Shown here: positions 16,495 to 46,368 of the stretch, one piece after another
Layout: every line of letters begins with the position of its first letter
How positions within the stretch are numbered: the stretch's first letter is position 1
Assembly: GCA_022450155.1 (NCBI GenBank)
Contig: JAKUQR010000021.1
Location: 1 to 49,000, forward strand
DNA: 49,000 nucleotides
DNA from: Gammaproteobacteria bacterium
Lineage (GTDB): Bacteria; Pseudomonadota; Gammaproteobacteria; Arenicellales; UBA868
Direction of reading: 5' to 3'
Notes under the pieces: generated by a model
Database searches by the model: none
The model's input: only the letters and a program-made list of their open reading frames with translations
Told to the model about the DNA's origin: nothing
Translations under genes and position numbers: made by a program

Positions 16495-16570
16495 TTTTTG
16501 GACTGTTAGTTGGTAGGACTCTGCCTTCACACGGAAGCGGTCGCTGGTTCAAATCCAGCCGCGCCCACCA
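16495..16570 (+). pseudogene. Degenerate tRNA-Val(CAC)
   Basis: The 3' half is tRNA-like: anticodon stem-loop CTGCC-TTCACAC-GGAAG (anticodon CAC at 16528-16530, one stem mismatch), a perfect T arm GCTGG-TTCAAAT-CCAGC, acceptor 3' strand CGCGCCC, discriminator A and encoded CCA at 16568-16570. The 5' half does not supply GGGCGCG for the acceptor and the D stem does not pair, although TTAGTTGGTAGG resembles a D loop. It is best read as a tRNA whose 5' part has decayed, or as the 3' fragment left by an integrase using the tRNA as a site. Confidence 0.6.
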
Positions 16571-16583
16571 TTTTCTACTGCTT

Positions 16584-19540: not shown

Positions 19541-19615
19541 CTCAGTGTTAGGGGACTTTAAAGCCCAAACACTATTATTTAAGTCTTTTCTGAATATTCA
19601 CGTACAATGTTTTAG

Positions 19616-22666: not shown

Positions 22667-22999
22667 TCAGTACAACTTAACCAGCCTCCAACGGGTCGTA
22701 TTACTCACGAATTTATAGGGTTTATTGATGCTGGCAATCCTTAAGTCAGCGTCAGTCTGATACAGCTTCAATGGCACGATTAGGTTAGGTGTGAGTGCGG
22801 GGTATACACCGGTTAGTTTCTTAATCTTTATCTTCGCTAATGGTGCAAATTTCCCTGTCTCATCTCTTCTAATGTGCTCTGGTCCAACCCCATCCAACCA
22901 AATCCAGCACTTTGGACGGTGACTTTTTGACTGTTCTGACGATACCGTACTACAATTCAATACCTTATCGATCAGTGTGGAGTCTTCCGGACTTACCAT
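22667..22999 (-). pseudogene. Doubtful frame ending next to the protease gene, partly inside a repeat
   Basis: A 110-codon frame whose first ~45 codons are the complement of the 208-bp repeat. The other half includes YQTDADLRIASINKPYKF, which faintly recalls the N-terminus of phage-type integrases (TDA-x-I-R-x-A-x-x-x-x-K-P-Y-K). It may be another recombinase scrap rather than a gene. No ribosome binding site was seen. Confidence 0.22.
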
Positions 23000-23067
23000 C
23001 TTTTCAACGACTTACGTAGTCTGATTACCGGTTTTCTCTTCGACTGTGCCTAAAATGTACCTAACTG
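22860..23067 (+). repeat. 208-bp direct repeat, copy 1
   Basis: Starting TCATCTCTTCTAATGTGCTC and ending GTACCTAACTG, this block recurs at 37595-37802 in the same orientation and at exactly the same length, with only about a dozen scattered changes. The complementary strand near its end encodes LGTVEEKTGNQTT before a stop, which looks like an integrase tail. A third, diverged 50-bp version of the end is at 44669-44720. Confidence 0.75.
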
Positions 23068-23161
23068 TTGTGCACGTTAGACAGTTCTGTCACTGCGTCA
23101 TGCATCCGTTTCTTATCTATCATTCGAGAAATCACTTATAGATGAAGCACGAGAAATAGAA

Positions 23162-24238
23162 ATGCCGACCAACGTCAGCCCGGAATACAAACAGGCCGAG
23201 GTGGAGTACCGTCAGGCACGGGAACCTCGTGAGCGCCTTGACTGCCTGCAGGAGATGCTCCGTACCATCCCAAAGCACAAGGGTACGGAGAACCTGCAGG
23301 CCGATATCAAGACCCGTGTCAAGCAACTCAGGGAAGAGCTGACGGGGCCCAAGAAAGGGGCTCATCGCAGTGGACCTTCCCATGTAATTCGCGCAGAGGG
23401 TGCCGCGCAGGTCAGTCTAATCGGTGCCCCTAACGTTGGAAAGTCGAGCCTCCATGATCGGTTGACTCATTCCGGCGCCGGCATCGGCGTGTATCCGTTT
23501 ACGACCCACTTACCACAGCCGGGCATGATGGCATTTGAGGACATTCAGTTTCAATTGATCGACCTGCCACCCGTATCTGCGGATTTCATGGAAAACTGGT
23601 ACATAAACGCATTGCAACCGGCGGACGCAGCTCTGCTCGTGGTCGACCCTGCTGAACCGGACTGTGTCGAGCAGGTGCAGGTGATCCTCAATCGGCTGGT
23701 GGAAAAGAAGGTCACGTTGCTCGAGTCTTGGCCCGGACCGATCCCACAGGCTAACGCCGCAGCGCTCCCAGCTGCCAACGGTAGATTCGATGATGGCACC
23801 TCGCAAGACGGTGATGAGATCAAGGATCCCTTTCGCAACGACCTCCCCACGTTGATGGTGGCAAACAAGGCAGACCTGAGTGGTAGTGGCGAGGAGTTGC
23901 AGTTGCTGCAGGCTCTGCTCGGCACCCGGTTGCCGGCGATGGTGGTTTCGGCCAAAACCGGCGACGGATTGGAATACCTGGGGCCGTTCCTTGCCAGTGC
24001 ACTGCAGATTGTTCGCGTGTACACCCGTATCCCCGGTAAATCCGCTGATCTCGATCGACCGTTTACAGTACGCCAGGGCGGCACCGTGCGGGACGTCGCC
24101 CGCCTGGTGCACAAGGATATTGCGCACTCGCTCAAGTTTGCCCGCCTCTGGGGTGGTGGCCAGTTTGTCGGACAGCGAGTGAGTGCTGAGTACCAAGTCG
24201 CCGACGGCGATATTATTGAGTTACACAGTGACCCGTGA
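23162..24238 (+). CDS. DRG/Obg-type GTPase with C-terminal TGS domain
   Basis: A 358-residue GTP-binding protein of the developmentally regulated GTPase (DRG) type, which in bacteria occurs sporadically and is probably ribosome-associated. An N-terminal helical segment (1-65) precedes the G domain: G1 GAPNVGKSS at 88-96, G3 LIDLPPV near 141-147 (the usual glycine of D-x-x-G is proline) and G4 NKAD near 236. A TGS domain fills about 290-358 (RPFTVRQGGTVRDVARLVHK and DGDIIELH). Length is normal. It stands alone, just downstream of the repeat, and runs directly into a truncated alcohol dehydrogenase stub. Confidence 0.9.
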   Translation: MPTNVSPEYKQAEVEYRQAREPRERLDCLQEMLRTIPKHKGTENLQADIKTRVKQLREELTGPKKGAHRSGPSHVIRAEGAAQVSLIGAPNVGKSSLHDRLTHSGAGIGVYPFTTHLPQPGMMAFEDIQFQLIDLPPVSADFMENWYINALQPADAALLVVDPAEPDCVEQVQVILNRLVEKKVTLLESWPGPIPQANAAALPAANGRFDDGTSQDGDEIKDPFRNDLPTLMVANKADLSGSGEELQLLQALLGTRLPAMVVSAKTGDGLEYLGPFLASALQIVRVYTRIPGKSADLDRPFTVRQGGTVRDVARLVHKDIAHSLKFARLWGGGQFVGQRVSAEYQVADGDIIELHSDP

Positions 24239-24346
24239 TTGAAAACCAAAGCAGCTGTTTTCAAGCAACCCGGCGATACATTGGCAATCGAGGAGGTGAC
24301 CGATCCCACTACGGCAGCGTTTCTTCTGTGTGCAATCCGTGGGTAA
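24239..24346 (+). pseudogene. N-terminal stub of a zinc-type alcohol dehydrogenase (MDR family)
   Basis: Immediately after the GTPase stop, a TTG-started frame of 35 codons reads KTKAAVFKQPGDTLAIEEV, which matches the first strand of medium-chain dehydrogenases (KAAV..EPG..L.IEEV). It collapses after about 25 residues and ends at a TAA. The rest of the enzyme is missing. No start ATG; it is the 5' scrap of a deleted gene. The following 123 bases before the slipin gene show nothing. Confidence 0.55.
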
Positions 24347-24469
24347 TTCTGGCCAGCCCCCAGCTATCTTGAATGACGTCGATAGGGGATGTCATGGCCG
24401 GCAGGGAGGTCATTTTCCTGCTTTGCGGTCAGAGAGCACCGTCTCGTTCATTGATAACGGCCCCCTTCT

Positions 24470-25390
24470 TTAGTCAGGTTCCTGGTGAGTGCTGCCGTCG
24501 TCCGTCCGGTCTTGCTTGACCAGATTCGCCAAGGACCCTAGGAAATCCATTGGCAGTGGAAACACAATCGTCGAGGTGCCTTCTCCTGTAATCTCGGTCA
24601 GCGTCTGCAGATAGCGCAATTGCAGCGCCTGTGGTTGCCTAGAGAGTACCTGGGCCGCCTGCAGCAGATTCTCCGATGCCTGGAGTTCACCTTCGGCATG
24701 GATGACTTTGGCACGCCGCTCCCGTTCTGCTTCCGCCTGTCGGGCAATGGCCCGGACCATGCTCTCGTCTAGGTCAACGTGTTTGATCTCGACGTTGGAC
24801 ACCTTGATTCCCCAACTGTCAGTATTCTGGTCCAGTATCTCCTGAATGTCATGGTTGAGTTTTTCCCGTTCGGACAGCATTTCGTCGAGCTCGTGCTGGC
24901 CCAGCACCGAGCGCAGTGTAGTCTGCGCGAGCTGGCTGGTCGCCGCGAGGAAGTTCTCGACCTGGATGATGGCCCGTTCAGCATCAATGACACGGAAGTA
25001 CACGACCGCGTTGACTTTGACTGAGACGTTGTCTTTGGAGATGACATCCTGTGTGGGAACGTCCATGACGATAGTACGCATGTCTACGCGCACCATTTGC
25101 TGAATGCCGGGAATCAGGATGATGAGTCCGGGGCCTTTTACTTTCCAGAAGCGGCCCAGCATAAACACAACGCTACGCTGGTACTCCCTCAGAATGCGAA
25201 TGGCGGAGGCAAATAACGCCACAACAACAAGCAGTCCAATACCCCATGACAACATTGTCATTCCACTACCCCCGGGCTCCTTGCCTGCCAGTACTGGTAG
25301 AACCGAATTACTCGAGAAGATCTCTACAAGGACATACCCTATCACAAAGAGCAAACCGAGAAGACTTGTGATTAGGGCTCCTTTCCACAT
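24470..25390 (-). CDS. Slipin / stomatin-like SPFH-domain membrane protein
   Basis: A 306-residue protein with two N-terminal hydrophobic segments (near 5-30 and 45-65) and an SPFH/band-7 domain. Diagnostic parts are [20 protein letters not shown] at about 70-89, [20 protein letters not shown] and [20 protein letters not shown]. Partnered slipin and NfeD proteins form membrane microdomain complexes involved in membrane-protein quality control. It starts 5 bp after the NfeD stop on the same strand, the classic NfeD-slipin operon. Confidence 0.93.
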
Positions 25391-25395
25391 TCTTC

Positions 25396-26808
25396 TTAAT
25401 CCCGCGGATGTGGCTCAACAATGACCGTCAGGCCCTCCACCGCAGTGACACGCACTCTGTCGCCCGCCTTCAGCGGAACCCGAGTGCGCGCTTTCCAGTC
25501 CTCACTGTGGACCCGCACCCGCCCTTCATCTGCAAACTCCGTAATTACTTCACCGACACTGCCCAACAGTTCTTCCTGGCCCGTGACAATTGGTTGGCGC
25601 CGAGCTTTTGCAGCTAGACCAACAATCCCAACAAACACCAAGGCATTAACGATCCCTATACCAATCATCATAGGTAACGACACGGCAAACCCCTCAATAT
25701 CTGTGTCGATCAGAATGACTGTCCCGATTACAAATGCGACCACACCGCCGATTCCCAACGCCCCGAAACTAGGAAGAAACGCCTCCGCTACCATAAAGCC
25801 AATGCCAACTAAGATGAGTCCTACGCCCGCATAGTCAACCGGTAGCACTTGCGCGGCATAAAGCGCTAGCAGCAAACAAATTGCCCCAACCACTCCTGGC
25901 AATACAAATCCTGGGTTAAGTAACTCATATATTAGGCCCAACATGCCGAGTGTCATCAATATAGGAAGAATGGTCGGGTGCGTGATTACCGACAACAACT
26001 GACTACGCCAGTCGGGTCGAAGATATTCTACGGAAACTTCTGTAGTTTTTAAGACCTGCTCGACCCCAAGGACATTGACCGTGTGTCCGTCCAACTTCTG
26101 CAGTAGGTCTGTTACATCATCTGCCAGGAAATCGATAACTTGCTGGTCAATAGCCTCGTTTGACGAGAGGCTTGCTGCCTCCCGGACAGCTTTCTCGGCC
26201 CAGTCGGCGTTACGCCCGCGTAAGTGCGCCAACCCGCGAATGTACGCAGCCGCGTCATTGACGATTTTTCGCTCCATAGCACTTTCAGGTTCGTTGTTCT
26301 GGTCCGCGTTCTGGTCGCCGCCCGGACCCGGCGTTTCTTGATTTTCTCTATCCTTTGCATCTGAATCACGGCGCGGATCGGATGGAAGATCGGGGAGACC
26401 AGGGGCACTACCAATTTGTACAGGAGTGGCCGCACCAAGCGTTGTAGCAGGCGCCATTGCTGCGATATGACTTGCGTACAAGATATAAGTACCCGCGCTC
26501 GCAGCCCGTGCCCCGCTAGGTGCCACAAAAGTTACGACCGGAATCGGCGAGGCAATGATGTCCTGTATGATGTCCCGCATTGCGAGATCTAGCCCCCCTG
26601 GCGTGTCAAGCCGAAGGATTGCAACAGCAGCGTTGGATTGCTGAGCGTCTTTGAGTCCGCGCCGAATATAATCACTAGTGGCGGGGCCAATAGGTCCATC
26701 TACTTCTAGTACTACCGCCTGTGTCGCTGTAGATTCTTGACTTAACGACAAGAATGGCCATATTAGTAAAGCAACCCAAGTTATCCAACGAATTCGGCAC
26801 GGGGTCAT
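25396..26808 (-). CDS. NfeD-type membrane-bound serine protease (ClpP class)
   Basis: A 470-residue long NfeD protein. A signal peptide or first membrane segment (residues 5-25) is followed by a ClpP/SppA-like protease domain ([20 protein letters not shown]), with the catalytic serine in [12 protein letters not shown] near residue 106. A charged linker follows, then several membrane segments (from about 285) and a C-terminal OB-fold NfeD domain ([22 protein letters not shown]). In family members the Ser-Lys dyad cleaves stomatin-like partners, here the adjacent slipin. Length and motifs are intact. Confidence 0.93.
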
Positions 26809-27381
26809 AGTTATGGCTCCTTATTCCCTATATCAACTAACTACATAAGCACGTCGATGTGCTTCCAGTGCTAAGACAATGACACAAACTCCAACCAAGA
26901 GAGCGTCTAATTCCTAGGTCGATATGGTGTTTTCTTATACACCCACGCTATCACTTGTAGCAACAACAGATCTACTAAAAATGCCCTGCCCGATAATCTA
27001 GTCCAGTTGTTGTGAGCGTGTTTTGAGCTTACTGCATGATGGTCATTTGGTTGGTTGGGGTGGGTTTGATGGCTCGGGTTACTGGTGCTGGGGGCCTGTC
27101 ATAGTCCAATCAAATCCAGCACTTTCGACGGTAGCTTTGACGGTAACAATATGGCCGTCGTAAGATTACATTCACTATTTCAATCTCTTACAGATCAGTT
27201 CGATCCCACCCATAGCCACCATCTAATCAAATACTTAGGTTTGTGCGTGACGACGCTGACTCGCCGGGGTGCAAATACGGCACAGCAGATTCCCAACAGC
27301 CAGAAAATTCTGTGTTTCTCCGAGAACAGAACGGAATTATCGACATTCGGACGCAACGTAAGCCACGGTTAGAATCCATGC
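26809..27381. other. 573-bp intergenic region with repeat sequences
   Basis: No convincing gene. It holds the right copy of the inverted repeat (26987-27072). From about 27107 to 27143, CAAATCCAGCACTTT plus CGACGGTAGC is a diverged short copy of the 22890 and 37620 repeat segment. An in-frame stretch of 95 codons (27085-27372) has no ribosome binding site and unremarkable composition, so it was not called. Confidence 0.5.
26987..27072 (-). repeat. Right copy of the ~83-bp inverted repeat
   Basis: Reverse complement of the block at 16370-16450 with a few gaps. It shares CCCACCCCAA, CATCATGCAGTA and the block CTGGACTAGATTATCGGGCA. The two copies enclose about 10.5 kb running from the tRNA remnant to the NfeD gene. 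Confidence 0.7.
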
Positions 27382-28347
27382 ATGGCAGAACATCATGGTA
27401 TCGGCTTCATCGGCCTCGGTAGCATTGGACAGCGTATGCTCGCTCAGGCCTGGAGTCATCCGCGGGTCCAACCTACCGTCGCCTGGGACCTAGCCGCAGA
27501 AAGATTAGCCCAAACAGTGGCCAACTCAGTTGGGTTGCGGGCTGCCGCGGACGTGAATAGCCTGATCAACGATGATGCGGTAGATGTGGTTTATATCGCA
27601 TCGCCACCCCTGACCCATGCAGCACATGCCAACGCTGCCCTCGAGTTCGGCAAACCGGTATTTTGCGAAAAACCCCTTGGAATCGACATCGCGACCAGCG
27701 AGGCCTTGGCAGCGCGTGCAACTGCCAGTGGCATTGCACACGGCGTTAACTTTATTTTCGCCTCTGCACATCCCACCACGCAGATCGAGCAGGCGCTGGC
27801 ACGGGCAGAACTCGGTGAAATCAAAGGTGCGGAAGCCCAGTTGCACCTACCGAATTGGGCGAGGCGGCGATATGCCGAGGCCCCTTGGCTAATGGAGTCC
27901 GATCAGGGTGGTTTTGTCCGCGAAGTACTTTCTCATTTCATTTACCTGACTGAGCGTCTGTTCGGGCCGGCCGTCGTCAACTATTCGCATTGCCGCCAAG
28001 GCCTTCGACATGGCAGCGCAATCACCGGCGTTGTTGCAGAACTCACCTGTGGTGATATCCCGATCAACATCCATGGCAGCACACTGGGCTGGGGTCCGGA
28101 CGTCTGCAATTACACAGTATGGGGCGAACACTGTTCGTACCGTGTGCACGATCTGCACGGATTGCAGGTCACTACCGGTGAGCGTTGGCTCGATTCAAAT
28201 ACCGCTGGCACCGATCCCGCAAATGACTGGCACCAACGACAATATGATCAACTTGCCGCAATGCTTGACGGCCAAACTCATACTTTGCCCGATTTTGCGG
28301 CAGGTCTATCGGTACAGAGACTGATCGAAGAGATATTGGCAGACTGA
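27382..28347 (+). CDS. Gfo/Idh/MocA family oxidoreductase
   Basis: A 321-residue NAD(P)-dependent dehydrogenase of the glucose-fructose oxidoreductase/inositol dehydrogenase family. The nucleotide-binding GFIGLGSIGQRM is at residues 8-19, and the family EKP motif is present (VFCEKPLGIDIATSEA, near 93-108). The C-terminal half contains WLMESDQGGFVREVLSHFIY, the substrate-side beta-sheet region. Its substrate could be a sugar, inositol or an amino-acid-derived compound; the neighbouring AA_synth protein gives no firm clue. A small open frame begins 4 bp after its stop. Confidence 0.9.
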   Translation: MAEHHGIGFIGLGSIGQRMLAQAWSHPRVQPTVAWDLAAERLAQTVANSVGLRAAADVNSLINDDAVDVVYIASPPLTHAAHANAALEFGKPVFCEKPLGIDIATSEALAARATASGIAHGVNFIFASAHPTTQIEQALARAELGEIKGAEAQLHLPNWARRRYAEAPWLMESDQGGFVREVLSHFIYLTERLFGPAVVNYSHCRQGLRHGSAITGVVAELTCGDIPINIHGSTLGWGPDVCNYTVWGEHCSYRVHDLHGLQVTTGERWLDSNTAGTDPANDWHQRQYDQLAAMLDGQTHTLPDFAAGLSVQRLIEEILAD

Positions 28348-28351
28348 TTCG

Positions 28352-28510
28352 ATGACCGGGACTGTTGTGGTGCTCTCAGAAAACCGCAGAAATCGAAGGG
28401 GGCCAAAATATCGCGGCCTCGAAATCGCGCTAACGCATCTGCAAGCTTACGAATTCCACCACGCGCAAACAGCGTCTGAGGAAGCCTTAGCGCTGGCGTC
28501 TCAGCCTTAA
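28352..28510 (+). CDS. Small hypothetical protein between dehydrogenase and AA_synth genes
   Basis: A 52-residue frame (MTGTVVVLSENRR...ALALASQP) starts 4 bp after the Gfo/Idh stop and ends 44 bp before the AA_synth start, so position suggests a member of the same operon. It has a basic N-terminal patch (NRRNRRGPKY) and a helical second half. No family recognised. It could instead be the N-terminus of a deleted protein. Confidence 0.42.
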   Translation: MTGTVVVLSENRRNRRGPKYRGLEIALTHLQAYEFHHAQTASEEALALASQP

Positions 28511-28554
28511 ATTGAACAAGTCAAATTTCAGACCGAACAAAGGAGATACCAATT

Positions 28555-29148
28555 ATGGAATTACGTAAAATTGCGATTTTTGTTGATGATATTCTTAGTG
28601 AAGGCGGCCGGAAACTCCCGTCGCCCACAAGGCGGGTTGCCGCGTGTGGGGTTATCAGAAATCCCTTCGCTGGCAAACCACCCATCGACGATTTTTCAGA
28701 GTTGGTTGATATCTCCGTGGATGCTGGGGAGGTGCTTACCCAGCGAGCCTTGGAGGCTCTGGGAGAAATTGAACCTCACGCCTACGGCAAAGGAGCGATT
28801 GTTGGCGCCGCAGGGGACCTGGAGCAGGGTGCTGCGATGATCCATGTCCGAGTTGGTCTGCCGATGCGCCGCCAAGCCGGCGGTGGACCTGCATTGATTC
28901 CGGGAAACGCTAAAGTTGGTCCAATGGGGGGGACTATCGACATCATTTTCGGTGGCATGGAGGATAGCTGGGACTATGACGCCATGGATGCCATGACGAT
29001 TTCGGTTTCGGACGCGCCCAAACCGGATGAAATCTTGCTTGTCATTGCGTTTCTTGGCGGCACACGTCCAAACGCTCGTATTAAGGGCAATCCGCCTGAA
29101 CAAGTGGCCGCATTTGTTGAGAAGCTTCGCGAGTCGGGAAGCAAGTAG
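28555..29148 (+). CDS. AA_synth (DUF1185) family protein
   Basis: A 197-residue member of the amino acid synthesis/DUF1185 family (PF06684). Recognisable parts are RKIAIFVDDILSEGGRK at the N-terminus, NPFAGKPPIDDFSEL near 37-51, EPHAYGKGAIVGAAGDLEQG near 72-91 and PLIPGN-like ALIPGNAKVGPMGGTIDIIF. AAAGGAGAT precedes the ATG. Homologues in catabolic operons lie beside amidohydrolases and transporters; the reaction is not established. Probably co-transcribed with the Gfo/Idh gene. Confidence 0.88.
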   Translation: MELRKIAIFVDDILSEGGRKLPSPTRRVAACGVIRNPFAGKPPIDDFSELVDISVDAGEVLTQRALEALGEIEPHAYGKGAIVGAAGDLEQGAAMIHVRVGLPMRRQAGGGPALIPGNAKVGPMGGTIDIIFGGMEDSWDYDAMDAMTISVSDAPKPDEILLVIAFLGGTRPNARIKGNPPEQVAAFVEKLRESGSK

Positions 29149-29424
29149 CAACCCCACCTGTCTCGCATACATGGGAATGACAGTTGAAGGAAAGCCCGCC
29201 TTGGGTCACTAAGAGACAAAAACGGCGAGACGGAATATGGTCCGTTGTGCGTCCGTCACCGTAAGTCAAAAGACGGCCCTTCCTGGAGACAGCAACATAC
29301 CTCTAGATTGGGTGACACCGCCACCTCTAGCTGATTACACCACTTTGTTTATGTGTGTGATATGGTGTTTATAGGCCCGATAGAGGCTGATCTAAATCAA
29401 CTTGTGGAGAAAGACAATGAAAAG

Positions 29425-29881
29425 ATGTTAATCGTAGTGCTAGGCATATTGGCTTTTCAGAGTGCTGCCTGGGCTGAGACTTGGGAAGACCGCGCCGCAA
29501 GGATAAGCTGCTTGGAGTGCTGATTTTACAGATGATCCCGCCTGTTGGAACCCACCTGTTGGATGGAACACCGAAAACCTATGGGTCGTAGATAAGGGGG
29601 ATCACGAAGCTTATTACGGGCTTGCCAACTGTTTTAGAGGCTGTGCGGAAAATGACACCTGTTACAAAGATAGTTGGCGGGATGAGGCTGCAGCGTCAAC
29701 GACATGTGATTTGCGGGGTATTGATCAATTCATAGTCATGTGTGCGCAAGAGGGTGCCACCTGCCCTGCGGGTAGCAGTGGGCCGCCATGGTGGAAAGCT
29801 ACAACGGCTTTAAAATCGATTAAACCGATAGGCGCCGGCGGTATGCCAGGGAAATTGTATGCCATGGCGTGGTGTGAATAG
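29425..29881 (+). pseudogene. Small secreted cysteine-rich protein with a broken frame
   Basis: ATG 29425 begins a signal peptide (MLIVVLGILAFQSAAWA) and continues ETWEDRAARISCLEC to an early TGA. One frame over, an open stretch from about 29506 to a TAG at 29879 reads ADFTDDPACWNPPVGW, NCFRGCAENDTCYKD and ends KLYAMAWCE, with eight cysteines in total. The two halves fit one ~150-residue exported protein if a single frame change occurs near 29500-29515. A second ATG at 29417 in another frame hints at a further change near the start. Family unknown. Confidence 0.5.
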
Positions 29882-29922
29882 ATAAACTAGAAATGCTGTG
29901 ATAAGGGCAGAGTTAGTAGTGT

Positions 29923-30372: not shown

Positions 30373-30549
30373 TGGCAGAAAGGTTTACAGTTTTAGTGGG
30401 ATGTTGGGAATGAGAGGATAGATTTACGTTGCTACGATGACCAATGCTGTAACTAATGCCTTAGGGAATCGGGCAACAGCAGCCTATGAAGTTCCTGCTG
30501 TAACTACACCAACTGTAAGTATCGGCCTAAATGAGCTTCTCAGCACCCA

Positions 30550-31218
30550 CTAACTGGCGACATACACTTGCGTGTGCCACATCGGTGAGTCGCGGTCGAA
30601 GACACGCTTAAATCCACCCGCCTCGATAGATTCCTGGACGAGTCGAGGCTCATGCATGAAGCTGCGAAAGTCCGAGCGAAACAACCAAAAGCCAAAGTTC
30701 CAAATCTTATTGTAGATTTCGCCGAGCAAGTGCTTTCTCGGATAGGTAAGTGCGATAACGCGGCTGGTACAATCGAGAGTCGCGCGAATCAATTCCTTGG
30801 GGTCGGGATAGCAGCAAACCACTTTGTCCAAAACCGTTACGTCCACGCTGTCCAGCGACTCACTCATCTCGACGAAATCACCAAGCCGGTACTGCGTGCG
30901 CTGCTCTAATTCGTGCTCCTTGGCGCGGCTCTCGGCAAGTTGCAACATGCGCGGTGCGAGGTCGATGCCGGTGGCAGTCGAAGCCCCCTTCTCCAACAAC
31001 GTTTGGTGTAAAGCGCCCACACCGCAGCCTACTTCTAACAAGGTTAGACCATCGAGCCCCATCGATTCGAGTTCGCGCACAAGTTGCAGTTGGTTGTCAT
31101 CGAGCCCTTTGCGTCGGTATCGGCGCTCATAATGCTTCGACATCCAACCGAAGCACGTTTGAGCAGCGCCTATATGTCGTGAGCAACAGTTTATGCAGCC
31201 CTCCCGAATTTGGGCCAT
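30550..31218 (-). CDS. SAM-dependent methyltransferase
   Basis: A class I methyltransferase of about 222 residues if started at ATG 31218; an in-frame TTG at 31263 with AGGAG upstream is possible and adds 15 residues. The SAM-binding motif I is LLEVGCGVGALHQTL, followed by the acidic end of strand 2 in TGIDLAPRML. The N-terminal CINCCSRHIG... and YRRKGLDDNQ stretches are typical of a family annotated as magnesium-protoporphyrin O-methyltransferase-like, often small-molecule methyltransferases. Substrate unknown; isolated gene. Confidence 0.83.
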   Translation of the reverse strand: MAQIREGCINCCSRHIGAAQTCFGWMSKHYERRYRRKGLDDNQLQLVRELESMGLDGLTLLEVGCGVGALHQTLLEKGASTATGIDLAPRMLQLAESRAKEHELEQRTQYRLGDFVEMSESLDSVDVTVLDKVVCCYPDPKELIRATLDCTSRVIALTYPRKHLLGEIYNKIWNFGFWLFRSDFRSFMHEPRLVQESIEAGGFKRVFDRDSPMWHTQVYVAS

Positions 31219-31413
31219 AGACTTGCACAGCAGGATACCACGCCCGGAAATGGGCTGTTCCAACCAACGCCTGCGCTCCTAACGAGCTGCGAGCGAGGCT
31301 ATACGAGGATTTTGGGGATATACACAGCGTTGGATTTAAGAGTTGGTGGAGAACAAGGAATTTGGACCTGAGACTCCACGACTCAGACGACCAATGCTCC
31401 ACGATTCAGATTT

Positions 31414-31545
31414 CTAAGGCTCCACAGCCCATATTATGGCCAGTATTACTACGAAAGCTACGAATACGAATCCCGCACCACCGCCTATCCCTAGCACCCT
31501 TAAAACTGCGCTGCGTTTACACTTCGGATTCTTGTCTTCTGGCAT
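31414..31545 (-). CDS. Small single-pass membrane protein
   Basis: A 43-residue frame (MPEDKNPKCKR...IIWAVEP) with a basic N-terminus and one clear hydrophobic helix (GAGFVFVAFVVILAIIWAV). This arrangement predicts a cytoplasmic N-terminus and an inner-membrane helix. The ribosome binding site is weak, so the call rests on composition. The flanking stretches 31264-31413 and 31546-31711 show no gene. Confidence 0.4.
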   Translation of the reverse strand: MPEDKNPKCKRSAVLRVLGIGGGAGFVFVAFVVILAIIWAVEP

Positions 31546-31711
31546 AGCAGGAATCTAGCAGAACATCTCATTAGCAGGTGGTTAACCAGTTAACTCCATA
31601 AAGTCGCTAACTGGCGCACATCTTTACTCTGTTAGAAGTTAACTTTTAACGGTATTAATGATGTCCTATCCGCGCACCCTCACGCCTCAATATTCTTAGC
31701 CCTTCACCCAA

Positions 31712-31903
31712 TTACCGTTTCCGTCGTCTCCCTGACATAACTGGTGCTATTGTCCAACCCTGCTTGTAGATTGGGTCATCAGGTTTAGCCCAGCCACCGC
31801 TGACACGGCTCGCCTTGGCAACCTCTTCACCAGTATCCTCTGGTTGCGAGTCTGAATTCGGCGGTCTACCCGAAACTCTGGTTGTAATCGTCCAACCTCG
31901 CAC
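31712..31903 (-). CDS. Doubtful small frame with an internal GWTI...SGR repeat
   Basis: A GTG-started frame of 63 residues beginning 10 bp after the LLM gene. It contains GWTITTRVSGRPP near the start and GWTIAPVMSGRRR at the end, so the DNA carries a diverged ~40-bp repeat. It may be a small basic protein or a scrap of a repetitive one. No family recognised. Confidence 0.25.
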   Translation of the reverse strand: MRGWTITTRVSGRPPNSDSQPEDTGEEVAKASRVSGGWAKPDDPIYKQGWTIAPVMSGRRRKR

Positions 31904-31913
31904 TATTAACGAC

Positions 31914-32762
31914 TTAATTCATAAACGCAGTGTATTTGTCGAGCAGCGGTAAGACGACGTCGGCGCCCTCGGAAGGCAACGGCAAGATTCCCCGCAGTGC
32001 GCCGAGATCGGAATGGGCCTTCAGGTCCTCCGCGTTAGCCCCCCGCGCATAGTACATGCTCAACGCAATACTTGCAGGATCACGACCAATTTTGACGCAC
32101 GCATCCCTAATCTTGGTAAGCCCAGAGTCGATGCTATGCGCGCCGCCCAAAGGCAGCCAACCGTCACAGAACTCAGCAATGTGCGCCGCAGTTTTCGGCC
32201 CCACCGAGCCGCCCATCAGAATCGGCGGATGCGGTCGCTGCGTCGGCTTTGGCCAGGCCCAGCTTTTCTCGAACTCTATGTGTTCTCCTTGGTAGCTTGC
32301 CTCATCCTGCGTCCACAGTTCCTTCATCAATAGAACTTTTTCGCGTAGCAGCTCGCGTCGCTGGTTAAAGACAACACCATGATTGCGCATTTCTTCGACG
32401 CACCAGCCGTAACCAACACCCAATTCAAATCGACCGTTGGAAATCATGTCCACGCTCGCCACCTCTTTGGCCAGCCAGATGGGATCGCGTTGCGCAACAA
32501 GGGTAATACCTGTACCGAGACGAATTTTCTCAGTCACGGCGGCGCAGGCTGCGAGTCCGACAAACTGATCGTGTGCACGCCAATAAATTTCCGGAAGCGG
32601 TGGCGCACCCTTTCTGCCACCCCAAGGCGTCTCGCGACTGACGGGGATGTGACTGTGTTCGGGAAACCAGAGCGAATCGAATCCGCGCGCTTCAACTTCC
32701 TTTGCAAGCTGAATCGGCTGAATTGACTTGTCCGTTGGGAAGATCATGACTCCAATTTTCAC
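31914..32762 (-). CDS. LLM class F420-dependent-type oxidoreductase
   Basis: A 282-residue luciferase-like protein, closest in layout to the TIGR03619 group. Features are GFDSLWFPEHSHIPVSRE at about 29-46, RLGTGITLVAQRDPIWLAKE near 81-100, GRFELGVGYGWCVEE, and PPILMGGSVGPKTAAHIAE. Third LLM protein in the window and the only one on the minus strand. It may bind F420 or FMN; no partner reductase is seen. Two tiny membrane proteins lie upstream on the same strand. Confidence 0.9.
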   Translation of the reverse strand: MKIGVMIFPTDKSIQPIQLAKEVEARGFDSLWFPEHSHIPVSRETPWGGRKGAPPLPEIYWRAHDQFVGLAACAAVTEKIRLGTGITLVAQRDPIWLAKEVASVDMISNGRFELGVGYGWCVEEMRNHGVVFNQRRELLREKVLLMKELWTQDEASYQGEHIEFEKSWAWPKPTQRPHPPILMGGSVGPKTAAHIAEFCDGWLPLGGAHSIDSGLTKIRDACVKIGRDPASIALSMYYARGANAEDLKAHSDLGALRGILPLPSEGADVVLPLLDKYTAFMN

Positions 32763-32968
32763 GACATGCCTCCTTGTGCTGGGGCAGCTGGTTTTGATGC
32801 AACAAACGCAAACAGAGCAATGATCACGCTCAGTTGCTCAAACGATAACAGGATCGAATTCCTACAAGCGACATGCGATCCTACAGCGTGCCAGATAATT
32901 GTCAACGATGAAGCGCCGTTTGTGTCGCGCCTGGAGTCCTTGACGCTGAAGCTACCAGCCAGAGGTAT

Positions 32969-33091
32969 TTACTCGCCGTCAGCGTTCCAGTAGGCACGAA
33001 TAAACCGATAGATAAAAATGCCACAGTACACCACTGCTGCGCAGATCAAGATGCCGAAAACGGTTAACCAAATGACCCCCGCTACGTCCAT
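32969..33091 (-). CDS. Small membrane protein, second of a pair
   Basis: A 40-residue protein (MDVAGVIW...YWNADGE) dominated by one hydrophobic helix (VIWLTVFGILICAAVVYCGI) and a basic-aromatic end. GAGGA, inside the end of the preceding small gene, lies about 9 bases before its ATG, and only 4 bases separate the two genes, so the pair is almost certainly co-translated. Function unknown; such tiny proteins often accompany transporters or membrane enzymes. Confidence 0.55.
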   Translation of the reverse strand: MDVAGVIWLTVFGILICAAVVYCGIFIYRFIRAYWNADGE

Positions 33092-33095
33092 TTAG

Positions 33096-33212
33096 TCAGT
33101 CCTCTGCCGATTTCTCTTGTAGCCAACGAAGACCTTTGAACACAAATACCTTCCAGATAACCCAGACTATAACCAGAATGAGCAGTGGGAAAGTGAGCCA
33201 GAATGATTCCAT
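33096..33212 (-). CDS. Small membrane protein, first of a pair
   Basis: A 38-residue protein (MESFWLTF...EKSAED) with one membrane helix (LTFPLLILVIVWVIWKVFVF) followed by a short charged tail. The ribosome binding site is weak (GGCTGG). It and the next gene form a minus-strand pair about 200 bp upstream of the LLM gene at 31914 and could share its transcript. No homologue recognised. Confidence 0.55.
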   Translation of the reverse strand: MESFWLTFPLLILVIVWVIWKVFVFKGLRWLQEKSAED

Positions 33213-33264
33213 TACCAGCCGTCAGTCCATTCGCCTGTCACTATTTGTAACGTAAGCTATAACC

Positions 33265-33303
33265 TTAACCCAATCTCTCCACCAAATTCTCTGCTCTTAT
33301 TAT
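33265..33303 (-). pseudogene. Recombinase tail scrap (RAENLVERLG)
   Basis: The minus strand reads IIRAENLVERLG before a stop, nearly the same as the last residues of the clearer integrase remnant at 46369 ([11 protein letters not shown], stop). The DNA CTCCACCAAATTCTCTGCTC is shared with 46381 and, with changes, 34545. The scrap sits right before the EctC-like gene. Confidence 0.48.
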
Positions 33304-33329
33304 CTGCAACGACAACAAAGGAGGCAGTC

Positions 33330-34157
33330 ATGTTCATACGCTCGCTTAAAGATGTAAAGGACACCGACCGTTACAAGGTTATGCCGAGAAGCGCTACATA
33401 CACAGCGCGGTATCTGACCGCCGCTGATGGCATGGGTTTTTCATTGCACGTAAACCGGGGCGAAGCTATCCCACCCACGCAACTCTGGTACAAGAACCAT
33501 TGGGAAGCCAACTACCTAATTGGGGGTGTGATCAAGGTGACAGACATGACTAGTGGGCAGGAATGGGTGCTTGAGTCCGGTGATCTTTACCAGGTTGGTC
33601 CGAACGACCGGCATCTGTACGAAGTGCTGGAAGACGAACACCACTTAAGCATTTTCTGTCCTTCGCTACGGGGCGACGAAACCCATGATGAGGATGGCGC
33701 CTATTCCGCAAGTGGTCCGGTGCCGGTTACCGAGCAACGTATGTTCGTCAGACACATTGAACAGATGCGGGAAGCCGGTCGGGAAATGCTGGTTGCTAAC
33801 GGCCAGGCACGGGTAGTTCGCGCGCTAACCAAATCTGACGGCCTGGGTTTTAGCTTTTCCGATGTCAATTTTGCCGCCGGCGCAACAACTAAGCTGTGGT
33901 ACAAACACCATTGGGAAACCAACTACATCGTTTCGGGTACCGGCCAGGTTGAAGATCTGACAACCGGCGAATCCTGGAAGCTCGAACCCGATATGACCTA
34001 CAACGTCGGCCCAAAAGACCGGCACCAGTTGAGCGCGGAAACTGACCTGCACCTGGCCAGTGTTTTTTGTCCACCGCTCGAAGGAACTGAGCAACACGAT
34101 TCGGATGGCGCGCTTGAACCCAGCGGACCAGTTCCACCAGGACCTCCTGGTTACTGA
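33330..34157 (+). CDS. Tandem ectoine synthase-like (EctC) cupin protein
   Basis: A 275-residue protein made of two EctC-like cupin units, about 1-130 and 138-270. Each repeats the order seen in ectoine synthase: an R-x-L...TARYLTAADGMGFSLH-type start, WYKNHWEANY or WYKHHWETNY, and GP(N/K)DRH, then a FCPxLxGxExHDxDGA ending. The iron-binding residues of EctC (Glu57, Tyr85, His93) correspond to E59, Y87, H95 in unit 1 and E196, Y224, H232 in unit 2, with identical spacing. AAAGGAGG precedes the ATG. No ectA or ectB is nearby, so ectoine synthesis is unlikely; another cyclisation or lyase reaction is possible. Confidence 0.9.
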   Translation: MFIRSLKDVKDTDRYKVMPRSATYTARYLTAADGMGFSLHVNRGEAIPPTQLWYKNHWEANYLIGGVIKVTDMTSGQEWVLESGDLYQVGPNDRHLYEVLEDEHHLSIFCPSLRGDETHDEDGAYSASGPVPVTEQRMFVRHIEQMREAGREMLVANGQARVVRALTKSDGLGFSFSDVNFAAGATTKLWYKHHWETNYIVSGTGQVEDLTTGESWKLEPDMTYNVGPKDRHQLSAETDLHLASVFCPPLEGTEQHDSDGALEPSGPVPPGPPGY

Positions 34158-34172
34158 AATTTTCTGCCAAAA

Positions 34173-34538
34173 CTAAGCTGGTTCGTCCCAAATCTCGGTA
34201 GCGGTATCTACCACAAGCTGAAGCTTTGCGATCTGGTCGGATTCAGTAAGTTCAGTTCCAAGATCGGCACTTGCGAATCCGCACTGTGGGCTAAGGCATA
34301 GTCTCTCTAGGGGAACGAACGCTGCTGCTGCTTCGATCTGCCGGCAGAGAGCAGATCGGGACTCCATTAGAGGCGTCTTGGTGCTTATCAGGCCGAGCAC
34401 AACCAGTTTGTCTTTGGGTATAAATCGTAAGGGTTCAAACCCACCGGCACGCTCAGAATCATATTCTAGAAAGGATGCATCGACGTCTAGAGAATTGAAG
34501 ATTGTTTCAGCGACATGCTCGTAGCTTCCGGAACCCAT
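34173..34538 (-). pseudogene. C-terminal fragment of a MetE-like methionine synthase
   Basis: The frame encodes only the last ~120 residues of a cobalamin-independent methionine synthase-like protein: FLEYDSERAGGFEPLRFIP, KLVVLGLISTKTPLMESR and LCLSPQCGFAS, the last carrying the zinc-site cysteine. The N-terminal two-thirds is gone, and the break at about 34534-34540 coincides with a recombinase tail scrap. The remaining piece has no separate function that can be predicted. It converges on the EctC-like gene. Confidence 0.8.
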
Positions 34539-34587
34539 CCAATCTCCCTACCAAATCCTCTGCTCTTAGGTAGGTGTACTGCATCAA
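34534..34587 (-). pseudogene. Recombinase tail scrap (RAEDLVGRLD)
   Basis: Eighteen codons on the minus strand read LMQYTYLRAEDLVGRLDG, matching the tail [17 protein letters not shown] of the remnant at 46369, including the nucleophile tyrosine position. The stop is replaced by the junction with the MetE fragment, with which it overlaps by a few bases. The bases 34588-34861 that follow show no gene. Confidence 0.52.
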
Positions 34588-34861
34588 CGAACGGGGCACA
34601 CACAGGGCACAGTACCTTATTAAAATTCCGGGTAACCCTCTTCCATTTGGCTATCTAAAGAGGTAGTCTGAATCTACGGGAATAGGCTGTGTTTACAGAT
34701 GTTTCTTCATGACAAAGTGCGCCCTTATGGCGTGCTTCTGTTCATGATGATGGCGGCTTGGAGGCACTCATAATGCCGGGGTCGGTGGTTGACATATCTT
34801 AAACGGGTGTTCAGGTTAGGGTTTCTATTTTCGGATCACTGACACCCACAATTACACCCCC

Positions 34862-35980
34862 ATGAGTGATCACACAGAAAATCTGATGGTACTTGATCTG
34901 AAGGCGCTGGCTTCGAACCTTGACTATATCAAGCATCTAGCCGGACCTGAAAAGCAGGTGATCGTATCGATCAAGGCAAATGCTTATGGGCATGACGTAA
35001 GACTTGTCGCTGGCGCTCTTCAGGAAAAGCAAGTCGATATGCTGGCCACCGGAAATATTGAAGACGCCAGAGCTTTGCGCACATGCGGTGTAGACACACC
35101 GTTACTGCTTTTTGCCTATGCAACGGCAGAAAACACGATAGACGCCGCGAAGGACGGGTTTATTTCGACTATCCCTAATCTTGCGTCTGCGATTTCACTT
35201 AATGCGATCAGTCCTGTCCAGATACCCGTCTATCTAAAAATAGATTGCGGCCTGGGTCGACTAGGCGTCCCCCTAAGTAAGGCAAAGGAGTTCGTTACCA
35301 AGATATTCCAGCTGGAGAAACTCAAAGTTGAAGGGATCTATACCCATGTCCCCTTCCCTGAAGTTGCGTCTGGCGCCTGGGCCCAAGAAAAGCTGAATCA
35401 ATTCGATGAGTTTATAGAAGCCCTCGAGTCCGATGGGTATTCAATACCTGTAACCCAAGCAATGGCCAGTTGTTGCGTATTGGCCGGGTTACGTGACGAA
35501 TCCAGCGCCATATGTATCGGCCATGCCCTTTATGGGCTGTCACCATTCTCATCAGAACAAGCACCAACTTTCCGGCACCTGCGACCTGTTACCCACTCTG
35601 TCTCCAGCACGCTGATCCATATTGGCCACCACGAAAAGGGATCGGACATTGCAGCCGGTGGACTCTACGGAACAGCAAATGCCCACGTTGTTGGCGTATT
35701 GCCTTTAGGTGCGGCTATGGGTATGAGACCACCCGCCGACAACAAGGAGATGTTTGTGCTTGTGCGAGGCAAGAAATGCCCAGTAATGGCTGTATCCTTA
35801 GAACATATATCGATCAACTTAGACAATATTGAGAATGTGGCTATCGGAGATAAAGTAACCATAATCGGCCAAGACGGTGACGAATCGCTATCATTGGATG
35901 AACTGGCAGACGTTTGGCAAGTGACGCCACTTCAAGCGCTAATGAGCATCTCCGGAAAATTTTCAGTCAAATCGATATAG
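34862..35980 (+). CDS. Alanine racemase-like PLP protein lacking key catalytic residues
   Basis: A 372-residue fold-type III PLP protein of alanine racemase length. The PLP lysine is K38 in IKANAYGH and the barrel motifs are normal (KIDCGLGRLGV). The residues that define racemases are changed. The NxVRxGIAMYG motif, which holds the arginine that contacts the PLP ring nitrogen, reads AICIGHALYG with C217 in its place. The GYADGY motif, which holds the second acid/base tyrosine, reads GAAMGM with A284. It is therefore probably not an alanine racemase and may catalyse another PLP reaction or none. The start has no strong ribosome binding site. Confidence 0.85.
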   Translation: MSDHTENLMVLDLKALASNLDYIKHLAGPEKQVIVSIKANAYGHDVRLVAGALQEKQVDMLATGNIEDARALRTCGVDTPLLLFAYATAENTIDAAKDGFISTIPNLASAISLNAISPVQIPVYLKIDCGLGRLGVPLSKAKEFVTKIFQLEKLKVEGIYTHVPFPEVASGAWAQEKLNQFDEFIEALESDGYSIPVTQAMASCCVLAGLRDESSAICIGHALYGLSPFSSEQAPTFRHLRPVTHSVSSTLIHIGHHEKGSDIAAGGLYGTANAHVVGVLPLGAAMGMRPPADNKEMFVLVRGKKCPVMAVSLEHISINLDNIENVAIGDKVTIIGQDGDESLSLDELADVWQVTPLQALMSISGKFSVKSI

Positions 35981-36018
35981 CAAATTCAGCCTTTGATAAG
36001 AGACAAGCGGAGTCAACA

Positions 36019-36093
36019 ATGAATCGCCTACAAGGGAAAGTCGCAGTTATTACTGGTGCTGCAAGCGTCTTTTTTGGATTGTCTGGTTTTTGA
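36019..36093 (+). pseudogene. N-terminal stub of a short-chain dehydrogenase
   Basis: The ATG at 36019, preceded by GCGGAG, begins MNRLQGKVAVITGAAS, the first strand and start of the TGxxxGIG motif of an SDR enzyme. It then breaks into unrelated sequence and stops after 24 codons. It lies 38 bp after the alanine-racemase-like gene, so a dehydrogenase once followed it in the operon. Confidence 0.55.
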
Positions 36094-36193
36094 TGAATTT
36101 GAGGCGTGGGAGCGAGGCATGGTGGATGTGGATGTAGGAATGGGCGGCAAATTAACCTTTTCTATGAATTTTGTTGACCAGTTAACGGGCTAA
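36068..36193 (+). pseudogene. C-terminal fragment of an unidentified protein fused to the SDR stub
   Basis: In another frame the sequence reads LDCLVFDEFEAWERGMVDVD, then GMGGKLTFSMNFVDQLTG and a TAA at 36191. Composition is protein-like and acidic. It has no start of its own and begins at the SDR break, so it marks the other side of a deletion or insertion junction. Family not recognised. Confidence 0.3.
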
Positions 36194-36256
36194 CTGACTT
36201 TTAGATTAATTCACGCCGTAGAATTTTGAAATTTACAAGAATGACACTTCTATTTG

Positions 36257-37337
36257 TCATTTGTACATTGCCTGAGGGTCGCCCAACATATCTGCATTGA
36301 TCTCTAACCCAAGGCCCGGCCCGTCGTTGCATCGGACACGACCTCTATCCATAACCGGAGCGCCACTGGCGAGTGATTTGTCCACTTTTATTGTCGTTGC
36401 GACGAGCAGGAGGTGTTCAGGAATTGTGTGGGCAAGGTGGGTAGTTGCTGCGTAGGTGATTTCCGCTCCGCCCACCTCTTGAACAAACATCGCACATCCC
36501 GCTTTGAGACACAGGTCGCGCATTTGGCGGGTTTTGGTGATCCCGCCAATTCGCTCAATTTTTAGATTCACCGCCGAGACTTGCTTGAGGGTCAGGATAC
36601 TGGAGAGAACACCCAGGTCATCAATACTCTCATCAAGAACAATCGGATGGTTGGTCCGTTTGCCCAGTTCAACACAGTCGGAAACCGTTTCGCATGGTTG
36701 CTCGATCATGACCCCGGGAGCATCTTGAATGCGGTGGATGTAGGTCATAGCTTCGTGCAGCAACCAGCCGCCATTCGCATCTGCCAATATGCGATCCCCC
36801 GGTTGTGCCTGCGCAGCAACCGCCAGTGTAAGTTCAGCGTCTGCGACCGGATCATCACCAACCTTGAGGGTCAGAACCTGAAATCCCTGCCTCCGTTTTG
36901 CTTCGATACCAGCGGCCAGATCACCTTCGGCTGCGTTGACGCTTGTTCTCACCAGCGGTGCCTTATTCGTCATTCCACCGAGCAGCGTGTAAAGTGGAAG
37001 GCCCGTGGTTTTGCCAAGGATATCCCAGCACGCGATATCAATTGCCGACTTGGCATAGATATGTCCGGTGAGCGTAGCGTCCATGAACCAGTTGATCGCA
37101 TCGATCTCTAGTGGGTTCCGACCGATCAATAGTGGGCAGAGTTCCTCCAGAGCCGCAAGTGCTCCGCCGCCAAAGCCTTCAAGATAATTGAGACCGAATG
37201 GACAACTTTCGCCCCAACCGGTTACTCCTGTATCAGTGGTGATCTCTACGACCACATTGGCCGTTTGTGTGACAAGACGCCCGCGCCTTTTTTTTGGTTA
37301 GGTCGACGCAATAGAGCCTGATCTGTGAGATTTTCAT
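36257..37337 (-). CDS. Mandelate racemase/muconate lactonizing family enzyme, frameshifted at A8
   Basis: An enolase-superfamily enzyme. The intact frame (36257-37255, 332 residues) has the barrel metal ligands in ILADANGG, VMIEQPC and IVLDESID, and lysines in LTLKVGDD and VNLKIERIGG, as in the MLE/dipeptide epimerase/hydroxyproline-betaine epimerase group. Its N-terminus is too short. Upstream, ATG 37337 starts MKISQIRLYCVDLTKK, the missing cap-domain strand, but in another frame; the two join within a run of eight A on the coding strand (37288-37295). So the gene is either inactivated, phase-variable, or affected by a homopolymer error. Reaction: probably epimerisation or dehydration of a carboxylate. 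Confidence 0.83.
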
Positions 37338-37433
37338 TCCGTTTTTCTCATCATTAAAAAGGTTTCAACGCACATGTACAGGGTGTGGTTTCACCATATT
37401 AAACAAATAGCCGTCGTCGTTAAATGGAACGCG

Positions 37434-37520
37434 TCAGGCTGGAGGGATACAAATTTGCTTTTGGCCGATGCGACGTCTTACGCGATCAGTGTGACCATAA
37501 TGTGACCGACAGGAGTTCTC
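37434..37520 (-). pseudogene. Recombinase tail scrap (SHYGHTDRVRRR)
   Basis: The minus strand reads ENSCRSHYGHTDRVRRRIGQ and ends QICIPPA before a TGA at 37434-37436. The S-H-x-G-x-T block lines up with SHSGHT in the integrase remnant at 19231, and the underlying DNA is repeat copy 2. Nothing of the catalytic domain remains. Confidence 0.5.
37487..37507 (+). repeat. Copy 2 of the ~21-bp recombinase-tail motif
   Basis: CAGTGTGACCATAATGTGAC plus C; one difference from the copy at 19332. It is followed by CGACAGGAG, and copy 3 at 48973 is followed by CGACAAGA, extending the match. Confidence 0.6.
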
Positions 37521-37594
37521 TCCAGTCCATTTGAGTCACAATCAGTCACAGTCGCCCGGGATTGTTGTGCAATTCTGACGCTATTTGACCTAGA

Positions 37595-37802
37595 TCATCT
37601 CTTCTAATGTGCTCTGGTCCAACCCTGACCAACTAAAGCCAGCACTTTAGACGGTAACTTTTTGACTGTTCTGACGATACCTTACTACAATTCAATACCT
37701 TATCGATCAGTGTGGAGTCTTCCAGACTTACCATCTTTTCAACGACTTACGTAGTCTGATTACCGGTTTTCTCTTCGACTGTGCCTAAAACGTACCTAAC
37801 TG
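37595..37802 (+). repeat. 208-bp direct repeat, copy 2
   Basis: Same length and orientation as 22860-23067, with only about a dozen scattered substitutions. It lies between the enolase-family gene and the cyanophycin operon. The two copies enclose about 14.5 kb. The 126 bases after it, up to the Mur ligase stop, show no gene. Confidence 0.75.
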
Positions 37803-37928
37803 AAGTCCATTCCAGTCCCTTTCAGTTAATTCAGGACAAACAAATGCAGCGTTGAGGTGCTTGGATGTCTCTCTTAGAAATTCCGCTCAAGTGTCCGAAA
37901 TACTCTGACAACATTCACAATCGGGCCG

Positions 37929-46313: not shown

Positions 46314-46368
46314 ATAATTCCGTAATAATGAACAGCAATTTACGGTACTAGTGGGGTGTGGGCAGCAA

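What the first reader, a model, noticed from the sequence alone, without database searches (positions are those of the whole stretch)
22860..37802. 208-bp direct repeat enclosing 14.5 kb, with a third diverged copy
22860-23067 and 37595-37802 are equal in length and nearly identical although their surroundings are not. A ~50-bp diverged end is at 44669-44720 and a short piece at about 27107-27143. The complement encodes a possible integrase tail (LGTVEEKTGNQTT). This is a second scar family, different from the 20-bp motif, and could mediate excision of the intervening genes by homologous recombination.
Basis: seen in the sequence. Interest (0 to 1): 0.62.

Follow-up and report, generated by a model that had tools for sequence, protein, structure and literature searches.

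The report
Scar left by repeated gene-island insertions
The 208-bp repeat is a fossil docking site where mobile gene islands once joined at a transfer-RNA gene end, one of about a dozen such scars that divide this stretch of an uncultured, probably marine bacterium's DNA into small cargo blocks; the mechanism is a known one, unusually dense here.

Summary
The repeat is real: 22860-23067 and 37595-37802 agree at 198 of 208 positions. The 27.1-kb piece and the 44.7-kb end are real too. I found no sign of a transposon or a structured RNA. On the + strand it reads as a compound attachment site: an outer arm (W) that recurs in this genome and in relatives, a decayed tRNA-Met 3' end, then the inner arm and last codons of a tyrosine-integrase gene (Y, minus strand). 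Undecayed relatives support this: the W arm is followed exactly 72 bases on by a tRNA 3' end at 7 of 15 sites (three tRNAs), and the Y arm directly follows the CCA of tRNA-Met in relatives. Two relatives share the sequence right of a core but not left of it. The 14.5 kb is not one element: it holds four more scars and no integrase gene. Both copies share the same decayed core, so the pair most likely arose by homologous recombination rather than by two insertions. A near-identical contig in another genome record joins copy 1's flank to a copy-2-like repeat, so exchange or conversion has happened; loss of the 14.5 kb is not shown. Known kind: tandem tRNA-targeted islands.

The parts
22860..23067 (+). 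Copy 1 of the repeat: compound attachment site (W arm, decayed tRNA core, Y inner arm with integrase tail)
22975..22998 (+). Decayed tRNA-Met 3' end including CCA (core), copy 1
   Evidence: sequence; undecayed versions
23012..23065 (-). Last 17 codons and stop of a Y-type integrase (tail), overlapping the arm direct repeat at 23046-23062
37485..37570 (+). X-type outer arm with direct repeat 37491-37507, joined to the left of copy 2
37595..37802 (+). Copy 2 of the repeat
37710..37733 (+). Decayed tRNA-Met 3' end, copy 2 (one difference from copy 1)
37747..37800 (-). Y-type integrase tail, copy 2
37778..37868 (+). Arm direct repeat followed by a Y-type OUTER arm: both ends of a Y element apparently fused at one direct repeat
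   Evidence: 81% to the C42 arm over 91 bp
27104..27221 (+). Third scar: W arm plus undecayed 23-nt tRNA 3' end (27199-27221)
44669..44720 (+). Fourth scar: Y inner arm / integrase tail
16521..16817 (-). tRNA-Val 3' fragment (on the + strand, 16521-16574) and C7-type integrase tail (16590-16814, minus)
19329..19564 (-). C7/C40-type integrase tail with arm direct repeat at 19336
33263..33317 (-). C66-type integrase tail (short)
34532..34596 (-). C66-type integrase tail (short)
34762..34790 (+). Truncated 3' half of a CAT-anticodon tRNA
46367..46515 (-). C66-type integrase tail

Best explanation
The 208-bp repeat is a worn attachment site for tRNA-targeting tyrosine integrases, of the kind that forms where two integrated elements abut: outer arm of one element (W), 3' end of tRNA-Met as crossover core, inner arm of the next element (Y), which overlaps the last codons of its integrase gene. 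Successive insertions at tRNA ends, with loss of integrase genes, left a row of mostly same-facing scars that cut 16-47 kb into small cargo blocks. Shown: the anatomy, tRNA cores in undecayed relatives, the same-facing order inside the contig, two places where homology with a relative stops at a core. Inferred: the two copies flanking the 14.5 kb arose when a single already-dead site was duplicated by homologous recombination (for example single-crossover insertion of a circle bearing the same scar), and the repeat is now a substrate for RecA-type exchange rather than for an integrase.
For: Integrases of this genome that look intact at C7 and C40, and one cut by the contig end at C13, point at the 3' ends of tRNA-Pro, tRNA-Val and tRNA-Arg. 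The arm direct repeat GTGNYYNNAANGTRNYY occurs 4 times in the window, all on +, against 0.06 per strand in 50 first-order Markov sequences (the motif was itself drawn from these copies and their relatives). The repeat of the X arm also lies in the last codons of the C40 integrase (24 bases, 92%, E 0.02). A tRNA 3' end (TTCRANNC, 12 bases, CCA) follows the W direct repeat at exactly +72 at 7 of 15 W sites. It lies within 360 bp of the X arm at 12 of 26 X sites, against a mean of 0.16 and a maximum of 2 in 200 randomisations, and in 65 of 3000 random segments. TTCGATCCCTGCACGGCCCACCA is the exact 3' end of the genome's own tRNA-Lys(ctt) and recurs at 4 scars. The Y inner arm directly follows the CCA of tRNA-Met 3' parts in L111 and L116; the first 7 and 14 bases of it follow intact tRNA-Met in L105 and L106, where the contigs end. 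Homology with G004:C14 starts at 22987, inside the core, and with G001:C18 at 27198, one base before a core. All 8 integrase tails recognised in the window lie on the minus strand. The copies share the core damage and differ at 3 of 141 positions right of position 67, against 7 of 67 left of it.
Against: The window has no intact tRNA, and no intact Y-type or W-type integrase was found in the loci searched. The cores of the two 208-bp copies are themselves decayed, so their tRNA origin rests on relatives. Ends of homology blocks shared with relatives are not significantly closer to the scars than by chance (5 of 22 within 100 bp, mean 2.7, p = 0.18); p = 0.009 after adding a 40-bp repeat is post hoc. 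Scars at both contig ends hold tRNA parts in the opposite orientation, which simple tandem insertion does not explain. 14 of 26 X sites and 8 of 15 W sites lack a strict tRNA end. An element that already carried a damaged core and inserted twice would also give shared damage.
Confidence: 0.88

Rival explanations
1. The 14.5 kb is one integrated element and the two copies are its left and right attachment sites, still excisable by an integrase acting in trans.
For: Direct orientation and arm-core-arm order at both copies. Related integrases that look intact exist elsewhere in the genome.
Against: Both cores carry the same damage, which an attL/attR pair from one insertion would not be expected to acquire separately. 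Four more scars inside. The W arm lies left of both cores and the Y tail right of both, so each copy looks like a junction of two elements. No integrase-domain match in between.
Confidence: 0.12
2. Homologous recombination between the copies excises or has excised the 14.5 kb in part of the population.
For: G004:C15 matches window 1-22913 at 99.7-99.8%, but its last 55 bases fit copy 2 (1 mismatch) better than copy 1 (5 mismatches), while the 300 bp beside it has 1 mismatch.
Against: That contig ends inside the repeat, so what follows is unknown; gene conversion would give the same picture. It is not a clean copy-2 sequence either (repeat position 32 fits copy 1).
Confidence: 0.3
3. An ordinary dispersed repeat: a miniature transposon or insertion-sequence fragment.
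For: Many partial copies in the genome; the extended site matches in 15 of 33 genomes of the family.
Against: No inverted repeat within 22840-23080, and in 37480-37870 only one 11-nt pair that does not mark the ends of the 208 bp. Undecayed sites carry different tRNA ends at one fixed distance, and the right side overlaps integrase codons.
Confidence: 0.03
4. Assembly duplication.
For: The contig itself starts and ends in scars of this kind, where short-read assemblies may break.
Against: The copies differ at 10 positions; another genome record reproduces the left junction of copy 1.
Confidence: 0.03

Closest known systems
tRNA-targeted tyrosine-integrase genomic islands as catalogued by Islander (PMC4383910, abstract and passages seen)
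   Same: Islands end at a tRNA gene and a displaced tRNA fragment; tandem arrays occur
   Different: Islander requires an intact tRNA and an integrase gene per island; here tails and tRNA fragments remain, and arms of different types are combined at one core
Dehalococcoides ssrA islands (PMC3146451, passages seen)
   Same: Row of tandem islands separated by 20-bp repeats of an RNA gene's 3' end; islands without their own integration genes discussed as mobilizable through accretion; integrase gene overlapping the site at its 3' end
   Different: Serine recombinase and a single target gene there; tyrosine recombinases of several types and several tRNA ends here
Additive flexible genomic islands of Methylophilaceae (PMC10872708, passages seen)
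   Same: Aquatic bacteria; island marked by recurring copies of the last 20 bp of tRNA-Lys(ctt)
   Different: One tRNA repeat there; here longer compound sites with integrase tails
Tycheposons (seen only as described in PMC10872708; the original paper is recalled, not read)
   Same: tRNA border, tyrosine recombinase, metabolic cargo in aquatic plankton
   Different: No tycheposon marker was tested for here

Membership tests
tRNA-targeted integrase island (Islander sense) | Displaced tRNA 3' fragment at the end of the island | tested here: met
   Undecayed tRNA 3' ends at W sites, including 27199-27221 in the window; decayed at the two 208-bp copies
tRNA-targeted integrase island (Islander sense) | Intact (regenerated) tRNA gene at the other end | tested here: not met
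   0 tRNA genes in the window; intact tRNA-Met beside the start of a Y arm only in relatives L105 and L106
tRNA-targeted integrase island (Islander sense) | Integrase gene within the island | tested here: not met
   Only tails in the window
Additive flexible genomic island / tandem accretion array | Repeated same-facing tRNA-end repeats separating different cargo | tested here: met
   8 of 8 recognised integrase tails minus, 4 of 4 arm repeats plus; tRNA parts at the contig ends face the other way
Cis-mobilizable element (CIME) | Functional attL/attR without integrase, moved by a neighbour | not testable with these tools
   Sites present, but cores of the 208-bp copies are decayed
Integron cassette array | IntI integrase and foldable attC sites | tested here: not met
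   None of the 5 non-Xer integrases scanned reaches NCBIfam's integron cut-off; copy 1 folds no better than shuffles, z -0.05 and 0.72 on the two strands
Insertion sequence / MITE | Terminal inverted repeats | tested here: not met
   none in 22840-23080; one internal 11-nt pair in 37480-37870
Tycheposon | Its defining recombinase and tRNA set | not tested
   The original description did not appear in the listings

The most novel reading that the evidence does not exclude
The region is a cassette system built from tRNA ends: units of one to a few genes, each carrying only an attachment site and the integrase codons that overlap it, gained, lost and re-joined in trans by a few resident integrases of different types because all use a tRNA 3' end as crossover core; half-sites of different integrases can therefore be recombined into hybrid sites such as the 208-bp repeat.
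Probability: 0.15. Interest if true: 0.75.

Novelty: new member of a known kind. Interest (0 to 1): 0.42.

Why it matters
It gives a readable record of how an uncultured, probably marine bacterium builds its variable gene pool: insertions at tRNA ends, loss of the integrase, and later exchange between scars. Integrase arm sites inside the last codons of the gene offer a simple reason why so many scars end in an integrase tail. It also warns that assemblies of such genomes can break at these scars.

Tried and rejected
Structured RNA: no Rfam match in the window at gathering thresholds; copy 1 folds like its shuffles on both strands. Phage origin: no match to the W pattern in viral contigs (one pattern, one scan); of 10 window ORFs scanned with PHROGs, 6 had no match, and the matches of the others were to a lipoprotein family, deaminases and families of unknown function, none to a structural category. 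Inverted-repeat transposon: not supported. Intact Y or W integrase: not found by tblastn with five integrases of this genome in the loci held at the time. A first tRNA-end pattern gave 8 of 26; I replaced it by one with exact tRNA spacing, which gave 12 of 26. The 26 X sites are those matches that reach the left part of the arm (10 own, 16 relatives); matches without that part, and one at the contig end (48973), were left out. The distances to the tRNA end vary (6 of the 12 at 154-156, 3 at 242, others at 89, 146 and 314; the last is a whole tRNA). The W sites are those hit by a pattern built from known copies; copy 1 itself is not hit by it. Coincidence of homology-block ends with scars: not significant on scars alone; I chose 12 blocks, left out two ends that are contig ends, and one boundary (24360) counts twice. 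Sequence lacking the 14.5 kb: none seen, but only window 16000-24500 and 26700-46600 were compared, with five relatives each. I did not build a tree of the integrases.
Full report
WHAT WAS CLAIMED AND CHECKED. The two 208-bp copies are real, in direct orientation, identical at 198 of 208 positions, 14,735 bp apart start to start. The window is contig C21 of a 3.2-Mb, 77-contig genome, 95.5% complete. Six named loci in other genomes carry an exact W pattern; four titles say Acidiferrobacteraceae and two Gammaproteobacteria, all metagenome assemblies, one from the Red Sea by its title. That the host is marine is inferred from this.

ANATOMY. laid copies side by side. On the + strand, copy 2 with its surroundings reads: an 11-bp-period direct repeat (37491-37507) and a CCAGTCC-rich stretch, together called the X arm; a stretch called the W arm (about 37572-37709); a 24-base core ending in CCA (37710-37733); a short spacer; and the minus-strand end of a reading frame, VRYVLGTVEEKTGNQTT*, which overlaps a second direct repeat (37781-37797). 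Copy 1 has the W arm from repeat position 1 on, a core with one difference, and the same tail with one residue changed. The letters X, W and Y are labels of this report.

WHY THIS IS AN ATTACHMENT SITE. Integrases of the same genome show the plan: at C7 and C40 (apparently intact) and at the start of C13 (cut by the contig end) the integrase points at the 3' end of tRNA-Pro(cgg), tRNA-Val(cac) and tRNA-Arg(ccg), with 5 to 58 bases between its stop codon and the tRNA gene. The last codons of C40 contain the direct repeat of the X arm (92% over 24 bases, but E only 0.02). Five non-Xer integrases of the genome carry the Pfam Phage_integrase domain; two others match XerC/XerD best, one over the curated XerD cut-off, the other just under the XerC cut-off.

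THE CORES ARE tRNA ENDS. The motif TTCRANNC-12 bases-CCA, the spacing of a tRNA 3' end, follows the W direct repeat at +72 at 7 of 15 W sites found by pattern. At 5 of the other 8 a damaged end with CCA stands at that same place, at copy 2 it stands 11 bases nearer, and at two (L043, L051) the CCA is missing. It occurs within 360 bp of the X arm at 12 of 26 X sites; 200 randomisations give 0.16 on average and at most 2, and 65 of 3000 random segments of held loci have it (the pool itself contains scars). One core is the exact 3' end of this genome's tRNA-Lys(ctt) and recurs at four scars. Another is tRNA-Met(cat): ARAGORN found an intact gene at 10 of the 20 loci scanned. The Y inner arm, CCATCTTTTCAATGACTTA, directly follows the CCA of tRNA-Met parts in L111 and L116; intact tRNA-Met in L105 and L106 is followed by its first 7 and 14 bases before the contigs end; a Y outer arm precedes a tRNA-Met 3' half in L103 and L118. 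Other tRNA-Met loci of that call are followed by other sequences. The cores of the two 208-bp copies are damaged relatives of the tRNA-Met end at C42. A third core belongs to a tRNA with CAT anticodon whose intact gene I did not identify.

JUNCTIONS SWAP AT THE CORE. Window and G004:C14 are homologous from 22987, inside copy 1's core, rightwards at 89%, but not to the left; window and G001:C18 are homologous from 27198, one base before the next core, rightwards at 91%, with an X arm instead of a W arm on the left. These are two cases of different left halves joined to the same right half at a tRNA end.

THE 14.5 kb IS NOT A UNIT. Between the copies lie four more scars: a W site with an undecayed tRNA end (27104-27221), C66-type integrase tails at 33263 and 34532, and a truncated tRNA half at 34762. 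By Pfam the cargo includes a TGS-domain GTPase, a Band-7 protein, an oxidoreductase, a methyltransferase and an ectoine-synthase-like protein, a deaminase and a mandelate-racemase-like enzyme; right of copy 2 are cyanophycin synthetase and cyanophycinase. In genomes of the same genus several of these genes occur as separate blocks on different contigs or in another order. All 8 integrase tails recognised in the window lie on the minus strand; four of them are 17 codons or shorter and rest on similarity to the others. The ends of the contig, however, hold tRNA-Val and tRNA-Lys parts facing the other way. The ends of homology blocks shared with relatives do not lie significantly nearer to the scars than chance.

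HOW THE PAIR AROSE. The two copies share the same core damage and differ at 10 positions, 7 of them in the first 67 bases. Two separate insertions would not be expected to share damage, unless the inserting elements already carried it. The economical reading is that one already-dead site was duplicated by homologous recombination, bringing in or rearranging what now lies between. At copy 2 the Y inner arm runs through its direct repeat straight into a Y outer arm (81% over 91 bp with C42), as if the two ends of a Y element had recombined across their shared repeat and lost what lay between; this would also explain why only the integrase tail survives. These steps are inferred.

RECOMBINATION AT THE REPEAT. 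G004:C15, in a genome assigned to another genus, matches window 1-22913 at 99.7-99.8% with 47 mismatches and 4 gaps. The two long stretches of G004:C14 match at only 85-89%, so C15 is probably a strain of the window's species binned elsewhere (inference). It ends 55 bases into the repeat region, and those bases fit copy 2 (1 mismatch) better than copy 1 (5), while 300 bp of flank has 1. So exchange between copies, or conversion, has occurred. Whether the 14.5 kb is absent there is unknown.

DISTRIBUTION. The extended site (37480-37810) matched in 16 of 61 genomes: 15 of 33 in the own family, the own genome included, and 1 of 28 outside it, weakly. An exact W pattern gave 6 loci among named genome contigs and none among viral contigs.

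STANDING. Tandem islands at tRNA or tmRNA genes, with repeats of the gene's end between them, are known (PMC3146451, PMC4383910, PMC10872708; passages seen). What seems less usual is the density, the number of integrase types and the hybrid sites. Six literature searches listed no paper that by its title or abstract start describes this region or repeat; subscription journals are largely outside that library.

Noticed in passing
window 30374-30413: Another dispersed repeat of about 40 bp with 14 further copies in the genome at E<=0.001, lying between two blocks that relatives hold separately.
   Followed up: partly
window 16368-16455 and 26982-27070: Inverted pair of about 90 bp that recurs in relatives, next to scars; perhaps the arm of yet another integrase type.
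   Followed up: no
window 33263-33317, 34532-34596, 46367-46515; L095 11507-11556: Integrase tails of one type (C66-like) sharing AAGAGCAGAG(A/G)ATTTGGT; two keep only about the last 10-20 codons and I saw no tRNA end next to them, so the crossover may lie inside the gene's last codons.
   Followed up: partly
window 1-36 and 48909-49000: Both contig ends lie in tRNA-fragment scars (tRNA-Val, tRNA-Lys), so the assembly breaks there.
   Followed up: partly
L027 (C42) 114-527: Part of an integrase 28% identical to C7, near a tRNA-Met core and read away from it, unlike the others.
   Followed up: no
window 37929-43274: Cyanophycin cluster: a synthetase over the curated cut-off, a second shorter synthetase-like protein under it, and cyanophycinase.
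   Followed up: no
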